Assembly: GCF_031453615.1 (NCBI RefSeq)
Contig: NZ_JAVIZT010000001.1
Span: forward strand, 3,038,001 to 3,102,000
Length of the DNA stretch: 64,000 bases
Source: Microbacterium sp. SORGH_AS_0428
GTDB taxonomy: Bacteria; Actinomycetota; Actinomycetes; Actinomycetales; Microbacteriaceae
Reading direction: 5' to 3'
Part shown: piece after piece, positions 43,287-51,935 of the stretch
Position numbering within the stretch: position 1 is the first letter of the stretch
How the letters are laid out: each line of letters starts with the position of its first letter
Translations under genes and position numbers: made by a program
Notes under the pieces: model-generated
The model's database searches: none
What the model was told of the DNA's origin: nothing
What the model saw: only the letters and a program-made list of their open reading frames with translations

Positions 43287-43820
43287 GTGAGTTCCGCGCC
43301 TTTCCCCCCGGTCACCGACGCCGAGCTCGCGGTGCTCCGCTCCCAGCTGGGGCGCCCGGCGCGCGATGTCGTCGGGATCGCCGCGCGCTGTGTGTGCGGC
43401 AATCCGACCGTGGTCGCCACCGCGCCGCGACTGGCCGACGGCACGCCGTTTCCCACCTTCTACTACCTCACGCATCCCGCCGCCACCGCGGCGATGTCGA
43501 CGCTCGAGGCCGAGCACGTCATGCCCGAGTTCGCCGCGATGCTGGAGGACGAAGACACCGCCGCCGCGTATCAGGCGGCGCACGAGGCGTACCTGGCCGA
43601 CCGCGAGAGCTTCGGCGAGGTGCCCGAGATCGCCGGTATCTCGGCCGGGGGCATGCCCACCCGGGTGAAGTGCCTGCACGCCCTCGCCGGCCACGCCCTG
43701 GCGGCCGGCCCCGGCGTCAACCCGATCGGCGATGCCGCGCTGGAGCGCAGCACCTGGTCGCCGACTCGCTGCGTGTGCGCCGACCCCGGCGCGGCGCTCG
43801 CCGAGGGCACCCCGGGGTGA
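43287..43820 (+). CDS. DUF501 family protein
   Basis: A 177-residue soluble protein with the DUF501 pattern CVCGNPTVVATAPRLADGTPFPTFYYLTHP and MPTRVKCLHALAGHALAAGPGVNPIGD, the latter split by conserved Lys-Cys-Leu-His. Conserved Cys and His suggest metal binding or catalysis, but no function is known. The gene is nearly always beside eno and divIC in actinobacteria. It overlaps the subtilase start by 4 nt. Confidence 0.85.
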   Translation: MSSAPFPPVTDAELAVLRSQLGRPARDVVGIAARCVCGNPTVVATAPRLADGTPFPTFYYLTHPAATAAMSTLEAEHVMPEFAAMLEDEDTAAAYQAAHEAYLADRESFGEVPEIAGISAGGMPTRVKCLHALAGHALAAGPGVNPIGDAALERSTWSPTRCVCADPGAALAEGTPG

Positions 43821-45121
43821 GAGCGCTCGCCCTGCGGGTCGCTGCCGCGCTGGTTCTCGTCGCGCTGACGGCGGGTGTCGCGCCCGCAGCCTATGCGCAG
43901 ACGACGCCGGCGCCGGTGCCGCAGGAGAGCCCGGGCGTCGACCCGATGCGCGCGCAGGAGTACTGGCTCGACGCGTACGGCATCCGCAAGGCGTGGGACA
44001 CCACGCGCGGCAAGGGCGTGAAGATCGCGATCATCGACACGGGCATCGGCAAGGCGCCCGAGTTCGACGGCGCGGTCGTCGGCGGAACGGATGTATCGGG
44101 TCTCGGCACGGCCGACGGTCGCACACCGGTGGGCGCGGTCGACGCGAACCACGGCAGCTGGGTGGCGTCGCTGGCCGCATCCCGCGGGCTGCCGAACGAG
44201 ACGGGCATGATCGGGGTCGCGCCGGAGGCGTCGCTGCTGTCGGTGTCGGTCGGGTTCGGCACGAGCTCTCCGGTGCCGTTCTCCGAGCAGATCGCCAACG
44301 CGATGCGGTGGTCGGTCGACAACGGCGCGAAGGTCATCAACCTGTCGTTCACGACGAACACCCTCGACTGGGATCCGAGCTGGGACGACGCGTTCCAGTA
44401 CGCCTTCGAGCACGACGTGGTCGTGATCGTGGCGGCGGGCAACCGCGGTTCGGGCACGGCGCGCGTGGGTGCGCCGGCGACCATTCCCGGCGTGCTGCCG
44501 GTCGCGGGCGTGGACCCGCAGGGCAAGGCGAGTGTGGAGGCGTCGACGCAGGGCATCACGCTGGGCGTCTCGGCTCCCAGCGAGCAACTGCTCGGTGTCT
44601 CGGCCGACGGCCAGGTGGTCGTGTGGAAGGGCACGAGCGGTGCGGCGCCGATCGTGGCGGGCATCGCCGCGCTGGTTCGGGCGGCGCATCCGGAGCTGGA
44701 TGCGGCGAACGTGATCGAGCGGCTGATCGCGACGGCGAAGGCGCCCGCCGGGGTGGGCTCGCTGCCGGACGACCAGTACGGGTATGGCCTGGTGGATGCG
44801 GCTGCGGCGGTGTCCGCATCCGTTCCGCAGGTGTCGGCGAACCCGATGGGCGACCTGTCGGAGTGGATCCGCGTGCACCGCCGGGCGGAGGAGTCTCCGG
44901 CGCCGTTGCCGACGGTGGGGGAGGTGTCGGTGCCGCCGCTGCCGCCCGCCGAGGCGGGTTCGCGTCCGGCGTCTCCGCTGCTGCCCAGCATGGATACGCT
45001 TTTGTACGGATCGATACCGTTATTGGTGTTCTCGGTGGCCGCTATACTGATAGCGCTCGGCGTCAGTGCTGCTGTCCGTCGCATCCGATTGGCGCGTGTC
45101 GAACGCGCGCGCAGCCGTTGA
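43817..45121 (+). CDS. mycosin-like membrane-anchored subtilisin (S8) protease
   Basis: A 434-residue exported protease. The signal peptide (about 1-27) ends AAYA-QTT. The catalytic triad is Asp in IIDTGIG, His in DANHGSWVAS, and Ser in GTSGAAPIVAG, with oxyanion Asn in VAAGNRGSG. A proline-rich linker (about 355-390) leads to a C-terminal TM (about 396-418) and basic tail. This layout matches mycosins (MycP) of type VII secretion, but no ESX genes are nearby. GTG 43817 overlaps the DUF501 stop. A promoter for ndh is embedded in its last codons. Confidence 0.86.
   Translation: MRALALRVAAALVLVALTAGVAPAAYAQTTPAPVPQESPGVDPMRAQEYWLDAYGIRKAWDTTRGKGVKIAIIDTGIGKAPEFDGAVVGGTDVSGLGTADGRTPVGAVDANHGSWVASLAASRGLPNETGMIGVAPEASLLSVSVGFGTSSPVPFSEQIANAMRWSVDNGAKVINLSFTTNTLDWDPSWDDAFQYAFEHDVVVIVAAGNRGSGTARVGAPATIPGVLPVAGVDPQGKASVEASTQGITLGVSAPSEQLLGVSADGQVVVWKGTSGAAPIVAGIAALVRAAHPELDAANVIERLIATAKAPAGVGSLPDDQYGYGLVDAAAAVSASVPQVSANPMGDLSEWIRVHRRAEESPAPLPTVGEVSVPPLPPAEAGSRPASPLLPSMDTLLYGSIPLLVFSVAAILIALGVSAAVRRIRLARVERARSR
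45020..45048 (+). promoter_or_regulatory. promoter of ndh inside the subtilase 3' end
   Basis: TTATTG (45020-45025), a 17-nt spacer and TATACT (45043-45048). The TATACT hexamer is the best -10 match in the window. Host codons here include ATA, TTA and TTG, rare in this genome, as if amino-acid coding gave way to the promoter. Predicted leader about 90 nt. Confidence 0.65.
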
Positions 45122-46697: not shown

Positions 46698-46770
46698 GCC
46701 CCCATAGCCCAACGGCAGAGGCAGGCGACTTAAAATCGCTTCAGTCTGGGTTCGAGTCCCAGTGGGGGCA
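46698..46770 (+). tRNA. tRNA with UAA anticodon (Leu by anticodon), short variable loop
   Basis: Acceptor GCCCCCA pairs with TGGGGGC (46763-46769); anticodon stem GGCGA/TCGCT holds loop CTTAAAA with anticodon TAA; T-arm is CTGGG-TTCGAGT-CCCAG. The discriminator is A46770 and no CCA is encoded. The anticodon reads the Leu codon UUA. The variable loop is only about 5 nt (class I), whereas bacterial leucine tRNAs have a long variable arm. TAGCGT lies 8 nt upstream. It borders the low-GC island. Confidence 0.85.
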
Positions 46771-46831
46771 CTGGGACACGTCTCTCCGAACTCGCAGCAA
46801 GTATCACGCTGACGATCGACTTTGGCTGCGA

Positions 46832-46877
46832 CACCTAAGGTGGAAACGGACACTCACTCCGTGCAATCTCTTAGGTG
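46832..46877 (-). terminator. hairpin at the 3' side of the island operon
   Basis: CACCTAAG and CTTAGGTG form the outer 8-bp stem; ACGGA and TCCGT form an inner stem with a 7-nt loop. It lies 58 nt past the last stop of the operon and could end its transcript. Confidence 0.45.
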
Positions 46878-46934
46878 CGCCAGGCTAGCGAGCACCCAGC
46901 ACCGTTAGCGTTCGGAGTGGAGCATTTCGACGGC

Positions 46935-47267
46935 TCAAACGACGACAAGAGCAGCACCCATGGCGATGCCTGCGACCGCCACGATGGAACCGGCAATGAT
47001 TGAACGAACATCGCCGGTTGTTGCGGCGTCTCTCCTGGCTCGCGCCACGACTGTCTTGGTCGTGGTGGCGATGATTCGGCCGTTCTCGTCTACTCGACGA
47101 GCAACGTCCGCCACGTAAAGCCCTGCCCCGAAGGCGACGAGCAACACCCAGGACTCGACCTCAGCAGGATCAGTCGCGACACGAGAGCCAACGACACCTA
47201 TTGCAATCGAACACGCGACAAGCAGGTATCGGTGCATGGAGGCCACTGCTGCGGCGATCCTTCTCAC
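46935..47267 (-). CDS. small membrane protein, last gene of island operon
   Basis: A 110-residue protein, not recognised. Three hydrophobic segments: about 13-30, 39-56 and 88-110. The middle part (57-86) is charged with basic residues and probably cytosolic. The GTG at 47267 overlaps the upstream stop (GTGA); an internal Met at residue 11 (47237) is an alternative. As the terminal membrane gene of a DNA-modification operon, it could be a membrane-acting effector, but there is no homology to support this. Confidence 0.6.
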   Translation of the reverse strand: MRRIAAAVASMHRYLLVACSIAIGVVGSRVATDPAEVESWVLLVAFGAGLYVADVARRVDENGRIIATTTKTVVARARRDAATTGDVRSIIAGSIVAVAGIAMGAALVVV

Positions 47268-47974
47268 GACGTTTCCGTGGATTCGGGCCCTGCCTCAACG
47301 AGGGCCTCAACGTCCGCGATGTCCGCTGCAGACGACCGTGGGCCCAATGCATCTATTCTTCGGGACATTTCAGCGCCCCAATCATCATTCGCCCTATACC
47401 AGGCATCAAACTGAGAGACATAGCGATCGCCTGCGCCTTCATCCATCCCGGCGATGATGGTCGCGGCCTGCGAGTATCGCGCGTCTAGGTCAACACGACG
47501 TAACTCAACACGCCGCTCCATGTTGCGACGGAGGGCGGTCACGCGCGCCTCCCGAGCCTCTTCCATCGATCTCGGCGCCGTCGCGCGGTAGTCAAGAACG
47601 ACCTCGAAAACGCCGTCCTCAGTGAGTCGAAGCACGCCGGCTCCAGCATCCCGGCAGGAATCGATGAAGGTCCCCGATGCCTCGGTGACCACGATGTACA
47701 GATCGCCTGCCGCGATAGCGTGGGACGCTCGGGCCAGGTTGGCGATCCATTTCGGAATCGCCAGGTCGGGGGTCGAACGCAGGTAATAGAAGGTTCGGCG
47801 GCCATTTGCATCTAGACTCTGGAGATCGCCCAGTATCGAGCCAACCATCTTCAGACCTGCAGGAACGGCGACTCGCACGGGCTCGGGGACGAGTGTGAAT
47901 CCAGCCTGGTCGATCGCAATTTCTGCCGCGACCCGCATGTCCGTCTTCGTCGGATCTTCATAGGCTGTGTTCAT
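47264..47974 (-). CDS. unknown 236-residue protein in island operon
   Basis: A soluble-looking protein with no motif I can name. An N-terminal mixed region (1-130) contains a hydrophobic strand-rich stretch (GDLYIVVTEASGTFIDSC, then GVLRLTEDGVFEVVLDYRA), followed by a highly charged helical region (about 135-165, rich in Arg and Glu) and a further helical tail. It overlaps the ParB-like gene by 4 nt upstream and the membrane gene by 4 nt downstream, so all are made together. Possible adaptor or toxin component; function unassigned. Confidence 0.6.
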   Translation of the reverse strand: MNTAYEDPTKTDMRVAAEIAIDQAGFTLVPEPVRVAVPAGLKMVGSILGDLQSLDANGRRTFYYLRSTPDLAIPKWIANLARASHAIAAGDLYIVVTEASGTFIDSCRDAGAGVLRLTEDGVFEVVLDYRATAPRSMEEAREARVTALRRNMERRVELRRVDLDARYSQAATIIAGMDEGAGDRYVSQFDAWYRANDDWGAEMSRRIDALGPRSSAADIADVEALVEAGPESTETS

Positions 47975-48939
47975 GACCGGCTCCCCAGCAAGTCAGTCAG
48001 GACAGAATGCAGAACTCTCAGCTTGTCGAATAGTGCGGGTGAAACGGGCCCGGAATCGCCAACGTTCGACAGATCGTCCGCCAGAACCTCGGCCTTCTTT
48101 ATGAGAGTCTGCTGGCGGTATCCTTCGGCAGCGAAGTTGTCGAAGACTTCCTGCGGGGTGACCGATACGTCTGAGACGAGTTCATCAAGCGCGTACTCGA
48201 TCATGTCGGAGTCGATTGAGTCAGACTCGATCGCTTTGGACAGTCGGGCGAGCAATCGGAAATCTGTGACGGCCCGAAGAGTGCGCGCTTCCGCCTTCGC
48301 TGCGAACGCGCGTATGACTTCCGCTCGTGTGTGCTTAGCGGCGAAGGAGGGGACAGCCGCTCGCAACACTGATTCAGCGGCTTCAATCTCCAGATAGAGA
48401 TCCTCGCGATGTACCTGGAGTGACCGGTCGAGATGGGCTTCCCTGCGGATCAGGTCGATCTCGTTCTCGGGAAGAGACAATAGACGTCTTGCTCGGCGCA
48501 CTGACGATCTCGTCACGCCAGTCATTTCGGCGAGTCTCTTCTCGCCTGTCTCGCCGGAGATCTTCATCACCTCACGAAGCGAGAGCGCGACGCTGATCAA
48601 CGGCCAGTCTTCGCGCACGTTGTGAATGTTGAACATCCGCAACAAGTTGTCCAGTGGATCCGGGGTAGGGATGACATTCGTGGGCACCTTTGTGAGCCCA
48701 ATATCCATGGAGCATCGCCAGCGACGCTCTCCGTCCATCAGGACGAAGCCGCCAGGAGTCTCCGGGTCCTGGTAGACGATCAGAGGAACGAGAATCCCAA
48801 CTTCCTGGATGGAAGTCCGGAGTAGATCGAGCCGTTCTTCGTTAAAGTAGCGGCGCGGGTTGTCAGGATTGGCGCGAATCAGAATTGGGTCGACTTCAGC
48901 CTGGTAGCTGGACGCGAGGAGATCCGGTGGCTGTGTCAT
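47971..48939 (-). CDS. ParB/Spo0J-like nuclease-domain protein
   Basis: A 322-residue protein. An N-terminal ParB domain (about 15-120) has the motifs NPRRYF and DGERRWRC, the latter equivalent to the GERR CTP-binding/phosphohydrolase motif of ParB. A helix-turn-helix follows (about 130-155: KRLAEMTGVTRSSVRRARRLL). The C-terminal half is helical and unlike chromosomal ParB dimerisation domains. No ParA partner is nearby, so it is not a standard partition protein. It could bind specific DNA or nick it, working with the methyltransferase whose stop it overlaps. Confidence 0.78.
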   Translation of the reverse strand: MTQPPDLLASSYQAEVDPILIRANPDNPRRYFNEERLDLLRTSIQEVGILVPLIVYQDPETPGGFVLMDGERRWRCSMDIGLTKVPTNVIPTPDPLDNLLRMFNIHNVREDWPLISVALSLREVMKISGETGEKRLAEMTGVTRSSVRRARRLLSLPENEIDLIRREAHLDRSLQVHREDLYLEIEAAESVLRAAVPSFAAKHTRAEVIRAFAAKAEARTLRAVTDFRLLARLSKAIESDSIDSDMIEYALDELVSDVSVTPQEVFDNFAAEGYRQQTLIKKAEVLADDLSNVGDSGPVSPALFDKLRVLHSVLTDLLGSRS

Positions 48940-49850
48940 GACACTAGGGCACTCTCTGCTACGGGGCGCCGGCGAGTCTTGTCCGAGGAGAGTAGACTTC
49001 GTCGAACGAGTGGATGCTCGCGAAAGTTGGGATAAAGATCCCGTATATCGGTGTTGAATGCATTTGTCACCACCACATGTGCCCCGGCGCGGCGCAGTTC
49101 CTCCGCTCGCGCAGCCAGACGCACCTGGTCATCCCATGTGAAGAGCTTTTCGTTGTAGTCGACAAATGATTCGCGGCGTTTGCTCGACGCGTAAGGGGGG
49201 TCGAGGAAGACAAAGTCTCCCTCTCCAGCGCTCCCCAGCGCTTGCTCGAAATCACCGTGTTGCATCAGTACGTTTGATCCCGCCAGCAATTGTGATGCGG
49301 CTCGCAGGTTATTTGGATCAAGGTGGTTTCCAGACCGCGGCTTTCCATAGGGTACGTTGAACTCGCCCTTGGCGTTTACTCGGTAGAGTCCATTCCAGGC
49401 CGCCCTATTGAGGTACAAAAACCTCGCCGCGCGTTGCACTGCCCCGGTCGGACTCGTGCGGCGCACTTCGTAGTAAAGTTCCTTGTCGAGAACATCCATC
49501 GGAGCGAGAGCGGCATAAACCTCGCTCGAATAATCGCGCACCGTCTTGTACATTTCGATGAGTGGAACGCAGGAGTCATTGATTACTGCATGGTTCGGCC
49601 TCAAAAGAAAGAAGAGTGAGCCCGCACCAAAAAACGGCTCGAAGTACGTTCTGTACCTGGTTGGGAAATGAGGAGTGAGCTGAGAGAGCAGGCGCTGTTT
49701 CGATCCGGCCCACCTGACGAACGGGCGAGGCGTCGCGCTAAGGATAGCCGCAGCTCTCTCTTCGACGTCCATTCGATCGATGTGCGACCAGTGGATCGAC
49801 TCGCGAGTGGTCGTGTGCACTAGGTTCGAGTCGGTCATCGTTCCCTGCAT
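48936..49850 (-). CDS. D12-class (Dam-type) adenine-specific DNA methyltransferase
   Basis: A 304-residue N6-adenine methyltransferase. Motif X region is FVRWAGSKQRLL, motif I is FEPFFGAGSLFF, the conserved FLYLNRAAWNGLYRVN follows, and catalytic motif IV is DPPY in VFLDPPYASSKRR. All are intact, so it should be active. D12/Dam enzymes methylate short sites such as GATC. The Met at 49850 (preceded by AGGGGGG) or at 49838 (preceded by AGGGA) may be the start. No cognate restriction enzyme is recognisable. Confidence 0.87.
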   Translation of the reverse strand: MQGTMTDSNLVHTTTRESIHWSHIDRMDVEERAAAILSATPRPFVRWAGSKQRLLSQLTPHFPTRYRTYFEPFFGAGSLFFLLRPNHAVINDSCVPLIEMYKTVRDYSSEVYAALAPMDVLDKELYYEVRRTSPTGAVQRAARFLYLNRAAWNGLYRVNAKGEFNVPYGKPRSGNHLDPNNLRAASQLLAGSNVLMQHGDFEQALGSAGEGDFVFLDPPYASSKRRESFVDYNEKLFTWDDQVRLAARAEELRRAGAHVVVTNAFNTDIRDLYPNFREHPLVRRSLLSSDKTRRRPVAESALVS

Positions 49851-49871
49851 ATGTCCCCCCTGACTTCCGTG

Positions 49872-49902
49872 AGCATATCGTCAGGAACATGACGAAGGCC
49901 AA
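49872..49902 (-). promoter_or_regulatory. putative promoter of the island operon
   Basis: On the minus strand TTGGCC (49902-49897), a 19-nt spacer, and TATGCT (49877-49872), about 22 nt before the first Met codon. The spacer is on the long side. The remaining 190 nt up to ltrA shows no gene. Confidence 0.35.
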
Positions 49903-50092
49903 TTGTGCCAGCATGTCTCGTCGGTCGAGGGAGCGGGGTGAGCAACGGCGCCCGGCTGTTGTGGGGCAACTTCCGAACGATGCGTTGTCTTGTGCAACTC
50001 CCGCTGAGCAGCGCCAATGCGGAAACTGACGATGGCCTCCGGTATGAGCTGCGTGAGCAGCATTCTCATCACACATCAGCCACAATCGACTC

Positions 50093-51268
50093 ATGATCGC
50101 AACCACCCGGGCGGGACTGCGCCGGATGCGGGCGCTCGATCCGCGTTCGCCGCACCGGGTGGCGAGTCCGCTCGAGTTGCTGTTCGACCTCGTCTTCGTG
50201 GTCGCGGTCTCGCAGGCATCCAGCACGCTGCATCACCTCATCAGCGAGGGGGAGGCCGCCCACGGGCTCCTCTCCTACGCGATGGTGTTCTTCGCGGTGT
50301 GGTGGGCGTGGATGAACTTCACCTGGTTCGCCTCCGCGTTCGACACCGACGACTGGCTGTACCGCGTCATGACCATCGCGCAGATGGGCGGCGTGCTCGT
50401 GCTCGCCGCGGGCGTGCAGCAGGCGATGGTGCACGACGACTTCCTCATCGTCACCATCGGCTACGTCATCATGCGCCTCTCGATGGTCGCGCAGTGGCTG
50501 CGCGCCGCGATCTCGGATGCGGCATCCCGCCCCACTGCGCTCCGCTTCGCCGTCGGGGTCGCCGGCGTGCAGGTGCTCTGGGTCGCCCGCCTCGCCCTGC
50601 CCGAGGGCGCGCCCCAACTCGTCGGATTCTGGGTGCTCGTGGTCCTCGAGCTCGCCGTGCCGGTATGGGCGGAGCATCGGCGTCGCACCCAGTGGCACCC
50701 GCACCACATCGCCGAACGCTACGGCCTGTTCACCCTCATCCTGCTGGGTGAGAGCCTGCTCGCGAGCGCCAACGCGATGATCGACGCGCTCAGCACGGGG
50801 GAGCACACCGCCCAACTCATCGGTCTCGCCGCAGCCGGCGTTGTCATCACCGCATCCATCTGGTGGATCTACTTCGCCCGCGAACAGGCCGCCCGCCTGC
50901 GCAGCACCTCCGACGGCTTCGTCTTCGGCTACCTGCACTACTTCCTCTTCGCCGCCGTCGGCGCCGTCTCCTCCGGCGTCGAGGTCGAGATCGACCACGT
51001 CACCGGCGCCACCGAGATCACCGGCGCCGCGGCGGGCCTCGCGCTCACCCTGCCGCTCGCGCTCTTCCTCCTCGCCACCTGGGCCGTGCTGCTGCGCGGC
51101 ACCGTGCGGCGGACCATCTGGTGGGCGATCCTCGTCGGCATCGCCCTCGTCGCCGCATCCGGACTCCTGCCGGTCGGCGAGTTCATCGCCGCCGCGGCCG
51201 TGATGGTCGGGGTCGTCGCTCTGCTCGAGGTCGACGCCTCCCGAAAGCCCGTCACCCAGCCGAGCTGA
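50093..51268 (+). CDS. ltrA: low temperature requirement protein A family membrane protein
   Basis: A 391-residue protein with about 11-12 membrane segments. The LtrA hallmark LELLFDLVFVVAVSQ lies near residues 27-41, and ERYGLFTLILLGESLLA near 210. LtrA is linked to cold growth in Listeria; the molecular activity is unknown. GC and codon use return to the genome norm here, marking the right edge of the island. Confidence 0.82.
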   Translation: MIATTRAGLRRMRALDPRSPHRVASPLELLFDLVFVVAVSQASSTLHHLISEGEAAHGLLSYAMVFFAVWWAWMNFTWFASAFDTDDWLYRVMTIAQMGGVLVLAAGVQQAMVHDDFLIVTIGYVIMRLSMVAQWLRAAISDAASRPTALRFAVGVAGVQVLWVARLALPEGAPQLVGFWVLVVLELAVPVWAEHRRRTQWHPHHIAERYGLFTLILLGESLLASANAMIDALSTGEHTAQLIGLAAAGVVITASIWWIYFAREQAARLRSTSDGFVFGYLHYFLFAAVGAVSSGVEVEIDHVTGATEITGAAAGLALTLPLALFLLATWAVLLRGTVRRTIWWAILVGIALVAASGLLPVGEFIAAAAVMVGVVALLEVDASRKPVTQPS

Positions 51269-51365: not shown

Positions 51366-51935
51366 ATGTGGGAATGGCTGATCCCTGTCGCGGTCGTCGT
51401 ACTGATCGTCCTGGTCGTCGGAATCTATCTGTGGGCGACGTACAACTCGCTCGTTCAACTCAACGTCCGCGTCGACGAGGCATGGAGCGACATCACGGTG
51501 CAACTCAAGCGCCGCGCCGACCTGCTCCCGGGCCTCATCGAGACCGTCAAGGGATACGCCGCCCACGAGAAGGCGGTCTTCGAGAACGTCACCCAGGCGC
51601 GAGCCGAGACCATCAACGCGCAGGGCCCCGCCGAAGCGGGCATCGCCGAAGGCCACCTGCAGCAGGCGCTCAAGTCGCTGTTCGCCGTCGCCGAGGCCTA
51701 CCCGCAGCTCCAGGCCAGCCAGAACTTCCTGCACCTGCAGCAGTCGATCGTCGACACCGAAGACAAGATCCAGGCCTCGCGCCGGTTCTACAACGGCGGA
51801 GTGCGCGAGCTGAACACCAAGATCAAGGTGTTCCCGAACAACCTCTTCGCCCGCAACCTCGGCTTCCACGAGCGCGAGTTCTTCGAGGTCGTCGACGGCG
51901 CCGCGATCGCCGAGCCGCCCCGCATCCAGTTCTGA
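51366..51935 (+). CDS. LemA family protein
   Basis: A 189-residue protein with an N-terminal TM (about 5-27) and a helical LemA domain. YNSLVQLNVRVDEAWSDITVQLKRRADLLP is the family signature, split around residue 40, and the C-terminal part has NLFARNLGFHEREFFE. Function uncertain; homologues sit in the envelope. A TAGGAT -10-like box lies about 30 nt upstream. Convergent with the glycosylase gene, 3 nt apart. Confidence 0.87.
   Translation: MWEWLIPVAVVVLIVLVVGIYLWATYNSLVQLNVRVDEAWSDITVQLKRRADLLPGLIETVKGYAAHEKAVFENVTQARAETINAQGPAEAGIAEGHLQQALKSLFAVAEAYPQLQASQNFLHLQQSIVDTEDKIQASRRFYNGGVRELNTKIKVFPNNLFARNLGFHEREFFEVVDGAAIAEPPRIQF

What the first reader, a model, noticed from the sequence alone, without database searches (positions are those of the whole stretch)
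46771..50092. Low-GC island with a methyltransferase-ParB-unknown-membrane operon
Four genes overlap each other by exactly 4 nt: an intact D12 adenine methyltransferase, a ParB-domain protein with a GERR motif and HTH but no ParA, an unknown 236-residue protein, and a three-TM protein. They sit in DNA of clearly different composition, beside a tRNA, with no other cargo. A modification enzyme, a possible nuclease/CTP switch and a membrane protein in one operon would fit a compact anti-phage or plasmid-exclusion system, and I know no described system with this set. No integrase is seen.
Basis: partly seen in the sequence, partly recalled or inferred. Interest (0 to 1): 0.78.

Follow-up and report, generated by a model that had tools for sequence, protein, structure and literature searches.

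The report
ParB-linked restriction-modification-like defence operon
A small foreign DNA block next to a tRNA gene encodes a DNA-marking enzyme joined to an unusual ParB-type protein; in some related bacteria the same pair is followed by a likely DNA-cutting enzyme, which suggests an undescribed kind of anti-virus system built around a protein better known for sorting chromosomes.

Summary
In detail: four minus-strand genes, each overlapping the next by 4 nt, in 58.5% GC DNA (surroundings 70.5%) at a tRNA-Leu, no integrase in the block. In the best-matching of 58 other genus genomes the flanks are 94-97% identical and 9.5 kb of other DNA, including defence-like genes, fills the site.

The pair D12 adenine methyltransferase plus ParB-like protein recurs: in G829, G711, G690 (4 of 366 genus genomes with the window's) and G1096 (phylum sample of 396). 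The five ParBs group together in a tree and carry MF[N/A]IHxxRxxW where 54 compared ParBs have EN-x-x-R. In three loci the next gene is nuclease-like: Mrr_cat above cut-off in G711, below it in G690, a homologue without Pfam hit in G1096. In the window and G829 it is a protein of no known family; a membrane protein ends the window operon.

Best reading: a restriction-modification-like defence system with a ParB-fold NTP switch as hub and a changing effector; the window's effector is unidentified. Not tested: methylation, NTP binding, phage protection. Library searches found no description. Novelty: new variant of restriction-modification.

The parts
46698..46771 (+). tRNA-Leu (TAA) at the left border
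   Evidence: homology with G282 ends at the tRNA 3' end, alignment end 46771
46772..50071 (.). variable low-GC block, 3.3 kb
   Evidence: GC 0.585 vs 0.705; not covered by any listed match of 58 other genus genomes (list cut); G282 carries 9.5 kb of other DNA here, G299 about 0.8 kb
48936..49850 (-). D12 N6-adenine DNA methyltransferase, DpnM/Dam type, first gene
   Evidence: PF02086 4e-48, TIGR00571 dam 2e-63, PDB 2dpm 3e-50
47971..48939 (-). ParB-like protein, motif MFNIHNVREDW in place of the canonical EN-x-x-R; hub gene
   Evidence: PF02195 3e-15; motif census and tree
47264..47974 (-). 236-aa protein in the effector position, no known family
   Evidence: no hit
46935..47267 (-). 110-aa membrane protein, two hydrophobic segments
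   Evidence: no family

Best explanation
It is a compact restriction-modification-like anti-invader operon. Shown by sequence: a D12 adenine methyltransferase, a divergent ParB-fold protein (ParB_N plus HTH) and one or two further genes overlap and so are probably co-translated; the methyltransferase-ParB pair recurs in five genomes, while the following gene changes (a PD-(D/E)XK/Mrr-like protein in three, unrelated proteins in the window and G829). Inferred: the methyltransferase marks host DNA; the ParB-like protein loads on DNA through its HTH as an NTP-controlled clamp (the catalytic Glu of ENxQR is replaced by His, so hydrolysis should be slow, absent or of another nucleotide) and couples recognition of unmarked or invading DNA to the effector next door. 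In the window the effector would be the 236-aa protein with the membrane protein, so the response there may be membrane-linked or abortive rather than direct DNA cutting.
For: MTase directly upstream of the ParB on the same strand in 5 of 5 members. D12 MTase within 1.5 kb in those 5 of 59 ParB loci and in 0 of the other 54. The five ParBs lie on one side of a branch with support 100/100. Third gene: Mrr_cat 1e-7, above cut-off, in G711; 0.0014, below cut-off, in G690, 65% identical to it; the G1096 homologue (2e-26) keeps the shared EEID and AKN columns. Two MTase lineages: window/G829 48% identical; G711/G690/G1096 related to each other. Mobile or defence settings: HamB-like, PDC-S48 and SLFN-g3 helicase genes at the window's site in G282; integrase, TrwC relaxase and ISL3 transposase around the G711 copy; PIN_12, CHAT/BovA-like and helicase genes and a tRNA-Pro around the G690 copy. 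Parallel: 4 of 17 family D12 MTase loci and 4 of 10 opened plasmid loci have a DGQHR (DndB-like, ParB/Srx superfamily) gene near the MTase; three of these proteins also have weak nuclease matches.
Against: Only five loci. The MTase usually stands without this ParB: none of 17 family, 10 genome-contig and 10 plasmid MTase loci had one beside it. The window's own effector has no recognised domain and no detectable similarity to the nucleases (hhalign probability 0.25%) or to G829's third protein. The G1096 nuclease-like protein has T where the others have the E of ExK and no Pfam hit; the nuclease profile found nothing in the PDB. No phage, methylation or NTP-binding test. AlphaFold models were unusable. 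The tree program warns of long branches meeting. The plasmid loci were a partly chosen subset.
Confidence: 0.6

Rival explanations
1. The ParB-like protein is itself the restriction nuclease: ParB/Srx domains have reported nicking activity, so MTase plus ParB would be a two-gene restriction-modification pair and the third gene an accessory.
For: A ParB-methylase fusion of Bacillus cereus with non-specific nicking activity is reported in PMC5512222 (passages); GmrS and Srx proteins are also linked to nuclease activity (passages).
Against: In three of five loci a separate nuclease-like gene follows; the ParB here keeps the ParB_N-HTH layout and matched no nuclease domain in Pfam.
Confidence: 0.15
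2. The block is a decayed remnant of a plasmid or integrative element: the ParB is a stability protein, the MTase an anti-restriction gene.
For: Low GC and tRNA neighbour; G711's copy lies among relaxase, integrase and transposase genes. ParBs on plasmids match the N-terminal part.
Against: No parA among the four genes. In the three annotated plasmid ParB loci opened, ParA or an AAA ATPase gene precedes parB and no D12 MTase is listed. The four window genes are intact and overlapping, and the MTase-ParB order is kept between the genus and a distant member of the phylum.
Confidence: 0.13
3. An orphan epigenetic module: the MTase changes gene expression and the ParB-like protein, as in KorB or VirB, regulates transcription.
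For: HTH domain; ParB-fold regulators are known (KorB match 4e-4; VirB only as a search listing).
Against: Nuclease-like third gene in three related loci; patchy presence (4 of 366 genus genomes) in variable sites.
Confidence: 0.1

Closest known systems
Type II restriction-modification (DpnM/DpnII-like D12 systems)
   Same: D12/Dam-type adenine MTase (2dpm 3e-50); nuclease-like gene in the operon in three related loci
   Different: ParB-fold gene between MTase and nuclease; no recognisable nuclease in the window
ParB/Noc/KorB CTP-switch proteins (ParABS)
   Same: ParB_N and HTH, GERR motif
   Different: no ParA among the window's four genes; EN-x-x-R replaced by MF[N/A]IHxxR; solved relatives align only up to about residue 172; linked to a D12 MTase
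GmrSD/BrxU/SspE (DUF262 ParB/Srx NTPase plus nuclease)
   Same: ParB/Srx-fold NTPase working with a nuclease (passages)
   Different: those use a DGQQR/DGQHR-type domain and an HNH/DUF1524 nuclease; here ParB_N plus HTH, an MTase, and a PD-(D/E)XK-like protein in related loci
DndB/DpdB-type DGQHR proteins beside D12 MTases
   Same: D12 MTase near a ParB/Srx-superfamily protein, in some cases with a nuclease match or a membrane protein between
   Different: different ParB/Srx lineage (PF14072, not PF02195)
ParB-methylase fusions of phages and Bacillus cereus
   Same: ParB domain linked to a methylase (passages)
   Different: single-chain fusions; the phage cases named use other methylase families (N6_N4, Methyltransf_23)

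Membership tests
Type II restriction-modification | site-specific DNA methyltransferase | tested here: met
   PF02086 4e-48, TIGR00571; activity not tested
Type II restriction-modification | cognate restriction endonuclease in the same operon | tested here: inconclusive
   not recognised in the window; Mrr_cat in G711, sub-threshold in G690, homologue in G1096
Type II restriction-modification | MTase and nuclease share one recognition site | not testable with these tools
   needs methylome and cleavage mapping
ParABS partition system | ParB with ParB_N and HTH domains | tested here: met
   (HTH_ParB below the curated cut-off)
ParABS partition system | parA next to parB | tested here: not met
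   no parA among the four genes of the block; the genome has another ParB, of the ENLHR type, elsewhere. The other four loci were judged by eye only
ParABS partition system | ENxQR-type CTP-hydrolysis motif | tested here: not met
   aligned residue is His and the Gln is missing; 5 of 59 loci differ from EN-x-x-R, all MTase-linked
GmrSD/BrxU type IV restriction | DUF262 and DUF1524 domains | tested here: not met
   no such Pfam hits to E=1
DndB/DpdB (Dnd, Dpd) | PF14072 DndB with DGQHR motif | tested here: not met
   no PF14072 hit for the window ParB, which has DGERR
MADS (gene set recalled) | mad1-mad8 set | tested here: not met
   only weak mad2 0.039 for the MTase and mad1 0.02 for the ParB

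The most novel reading that the evidence does not exclude
A modular family of restriction-modification-like immune systems in which a ParB NTP clamp, with an altered hydrolysis motif, patrols DNA for missing adenine methylation and switches on interchangeable effectors: a DNA nuclease in some loci and, in the window, a membrane-linked effector. To my knowledge it would be the first ParB_N-HTH clamp used as an immune sensor.
Probability: 0.22. Interest if true: 0.87.

Novelty: new variant of a known kind. Interest (0 to 1): 0.62.

Why it matters
CTP-type switching of the ParB fold is best known from chromosome segregation. PMC12704722 (abstract and passages) reports numerous orphan ParB homologues outside parAB operons, frequently linked to mobile elements. 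This operon gives one such group a concrete, testable role: a clamp between a DNA-marking enzyme and a changing effector. The DGQHR loci suggest that pairing D12 methyltransferases with ParB/Srx-fold proteins may have arisen more than once.

Tried and rejected
Prophage late genes: rejected. Viral-contig scans with the 236-aa protein, the window ParB, the G711 ParB and the nuclease profile gave nothing; the ParB profile gave one 30% hit over residues 9-129 in a protein that has ENQQR. Phage-record matches of the ParBs stayed within residues 3-192. Site-specific integration: no att-like repeat seen. P0003 as a divergent nuclease: hhalign found nothing; G829's third protein likewise. G829's third protein as a HEPN RNase: an Rx4H pattern seen by eye, no Pfam support, not claimed. 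AlphaFold on P0003 (pLDDT 55) and P0002 (45), both single-sequence, were too poor for a fold search, which I did not run. An 18-bp near-palindrome at 49878-49895 upstream of the operon is expected about once by chance by my own rough estimate. Halorussus nuclease match: no MTase or ParB listed beside it in an incomplete gene table. The records had no listed genes in the stretch and I did not follow them.

Counts: family scan with P0002, 15 of 249 genomes at 1e-15; the 14 besides the own are EN-x-x-R type. Order scan, 11 of 396 at 1e-17; the 11 places in the other 10 genomes are EN-x-x-R type. Genus, 4 of 366 at 1e-17. Phylum with A1, 150 of 396 at 1e-22; the 30 best places were fetched and 2 (own, G1096) are of this group. 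The census used the ParB ORF of 59 fetched loci, not all hits, and some are near-copies. Site survey: 20 sites fetched; G282, G299 and 15 others could be laid out, three (L093-L095) could not be oriented and were left out.
Full report
Observation. The four genes are present as described, all on the minus strand, with three overlaps of exactly 4 nt. The block 46772-50071 has 58.5% GC; 271 overlapping windows of the same length elsewhere in the 64 kb average 70.5% (sd 1.3, minimum 67.8). A tRNA-Leu ends at 46771.

The site is variable. The flanking DNA matched in 59 of 59 genus genomes searched, the own included; the list is cut, and no listed match outside the own genome covers the block. In the best match, G282, the flanks are 96.9% and 94.1% identical; homology stops at the tRNA 3' end (46771) and resumes at 50072. 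Between them G282 has 9,537 bases with a HamB-like helicase (PADLOC 1e-26), a PDC-S48 protein (5e-133) and a protein with a schlafen-type helicase domain (PF09848 3e-67), besides genes without a match. G299 has about 780 bases there. In 15 further sites that could be laid out (L078-L092), the ORFs picked between tRNA and right flank have third-position GC of 0.70 or more (0.63-0.81 in the G282 insert), so they look mostly like ordinary chromosome. Different foreign blocks thus sit at this tRNA in the window's genome and in its best match.

The proteins. Gene 1 is a D12 adenine methyltransferase (PF02086 4e-48; closest solved structure DpnM, 2dpm, 3e-50). Gene 2 has ParB_N (3e-15) and a weak HTH_ParB; its best solved relative is a ParB (6t1f 1e-21), with Spo0J and Noc below. 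Genes 3 and 4 have no match in Pfam, PADLOC, PHROGs or NCBIfam; gene 3 also none in the PDB, plasmids, phages, viral contigs, genome contigs (by exact peptide patterns, which finds close relatives only) or the other 248 of 249 family genomes.

Relatives. Searching the 366 held genomes of the genus with gene 2 gave three relatives: G829 (34% over residues 14-320, 4e-45), G711 (9e-25) and G690 (1e-23). A profile of the four (A1) in 396 genomes drawn across the phylum gave one more clear member, G1096 (5e-69); the next best was at 4e-28, and the 28 next-best places fetched are all of the EN-x-x-R type. In all five, a D12-type methyltransferase gene lies directly upstream on the same strand; Pfam confirms it in the window, G829, G711 and G1096, and the G690 one is 74% identical to G711's. 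Window and G829 share one MTase lineage (48% identity), the other three another. The next gene codes for a 306-334 aa nuclease-like protein in three loci: Mrr_cat 1e-7, above cut-off, in G711; 0.0014, below cut-off, in G690; and a homologue without a Pfam hit in G1096 (2e-26 to G711's). The aligned E-x-K has E in G711 and G690 but T in G1096. In G829 it is a 276-aa protein without a family; in the window the 236-aa protein, then the membrane protein. These two third proteins are not detectably similar to each other or to the nucleases. Whether the other loci have a membrane gene of the same operon was not tested. Neighbouring genes overlap or lie within 14 bases in every locus.

The ParB group. 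The five proteins carry MF[N/A]IHxxRxxW; the 54 other ParB ORFs in the census have EN-x-x-R. In a tree the five lie on one side of a branch with support 100/100; the program warns that long branches meet there and elsewhere. A D12 methyltransferase lies within 1.5 kb of those five and of none of the other 54. Conversely, none of 37 other D12 methyltransferase loci examined (17 family, 10 genome-contig, 10 plasmid) has a relative of these ParBs beside it. In B. subtilis ParB the GERR and ENLQR glutamates are both needed for CTP hydrolysis, alanine or histidine at these places gave similar initial results, and PadC, which binds but does not hydrolyse CTP, lacks ENLQR (PMC8494293, passages). The window protein keeps GERR but has His for the ENLQR Glu and lacks the Gln. 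So nucleotide binding is likely and hydrolysis doubtful; PMC12704722 (passages) shows that some ParB-fold proteins bind ATP or GTP instead.

Setting of the relatives. Around G711's copy lie a TrwC relaxase, a phage integrase, an ISL3 transposase and a C5 methyltransferase gene. G690's copy is followed by a PIN_12 protein and a CHAT protein matching BovA, with a helicase gene and a tRNA-Pro on the other side. G829's copy sits beside what I take for ribonucleotide reductase genes (recalled from the sequence, no family call). In 29 genus genomes, own included, only one 40-base match falls inside that cassette; in G261 the flanks lie 530 bases apart instead of about 2,820, and in others they are further apart or elsewhere.

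A parallel. Of 17 family loci with a P0001-like methyltransferase, 4 have a DGQHR (DndB-like) gene nearby by seed search (L036, L037, L038, L043), and L040 has a DndB Pfam hit two genes on. In L036-L038 the 761-767 aa protein directly follows the MTase and has DndB at 1e-12 to 6e-18 plus weak Hjc matches (L037 just above the cut-off, the others below) and, in two, a sub-threshold HEPN_Swt1 match. Among 10 genome-contig loci none had one by seed search; one motif match in L109 overlaps the MTase on the other strand and looks like chance. On plasmids 4 of 10 opened loci had one; in two of these a small membrane protein lies between MTase and DGQHR protein. The 10 were all 7 records of one search and 3 chosen from 70 of another. 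GmrS/DUF262 and DGQHR-motif proteins are placed in the ParB/Srx superfamily (PMC4619093, passages). This suggests, but does not prove, a repeated coupling of D12 methyltransferases to ParB-fold proteins.

Function. The simplest reading is a restriction-modification-like system: the MTase protects self, the ParB-like protein is the conserved DNA-bound switch, the third gene the effector. The nuclease-like third genes support restriction in three loci. For the window the effector is unknown, and the membrane protein makes a membrane-linked response possible. None of this was tested biochemically.

Literature. Searches of the held library for ParB with restriction-modification, CTP, methyltransferase, phage defence, orphan ParB, Mrr, DGQHR, DndB and HEPN listed nothing that I recognised as this operon; I read listings, passages of seven papers, and the abstract of one of these (PMC12704722). 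PMC12704722 has no mention of D12, PF02086 or Mrr in its main text. PMC12839542, PMC10853773, PMC5512222 and PMC10952713 (passages) describe other ParB/Srx uses. Supplements and subscription papers were not read, so absence from print is not established.

Noticed in passing
L076 1-13501 (G282): The same tRNA-Leu site in the best-matching relative holds a HamB-like helicase with a 354-aa partner of no known family, a MazG-like small protein (recalled), a protein with a schlafen-type helicase domain and a PDC-S48 protein: possibly a Hachiman-like system with a diverged first gene.
   Followed up: partly
L037 6347-9498 (G226), also L036, L038: D12 methyltransferase directly followed by a ~765-aa protein with DndB (DGQHR) and weak Hjc/PD-(D/E)XK and HEPN_Swt1 matches: a possible two-gene restriction-modification system with a ParB/Srx domain.
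   Followed up: partly
L166 2062-5051 (Acinetobacter plasmid pTR3_1) and L171 3980-6530 (Roseateles plasmid): D12 methyltransferase, small membrane protein and DGQHR protein in a row on plasmids.
   Followed up: partly
L122 4132-10777 (G690): The MTase-ParB-nuclease cassette is followed by a PIN_12 protein and a CHAT-domain protein matching BovA (1.5e-25), a likely defence island.
   Followed up: partly
window 50093-51268: Low-temperature-requirement-A-like gene (name recalled) forms the right flank; in several congeners its match lies elsewhere in the genome while the LemA-like gene 51366-51935 (name recalled) stays near the tRNA-Leu, so the right border has been rearranged.
   Followed up: no
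window 43394-45121: Subtilisin-like, mycosin-type protease with a C-terminal membrane segment (recalled), possibly linked to type VII secretion; not examined.
   Followed up: no
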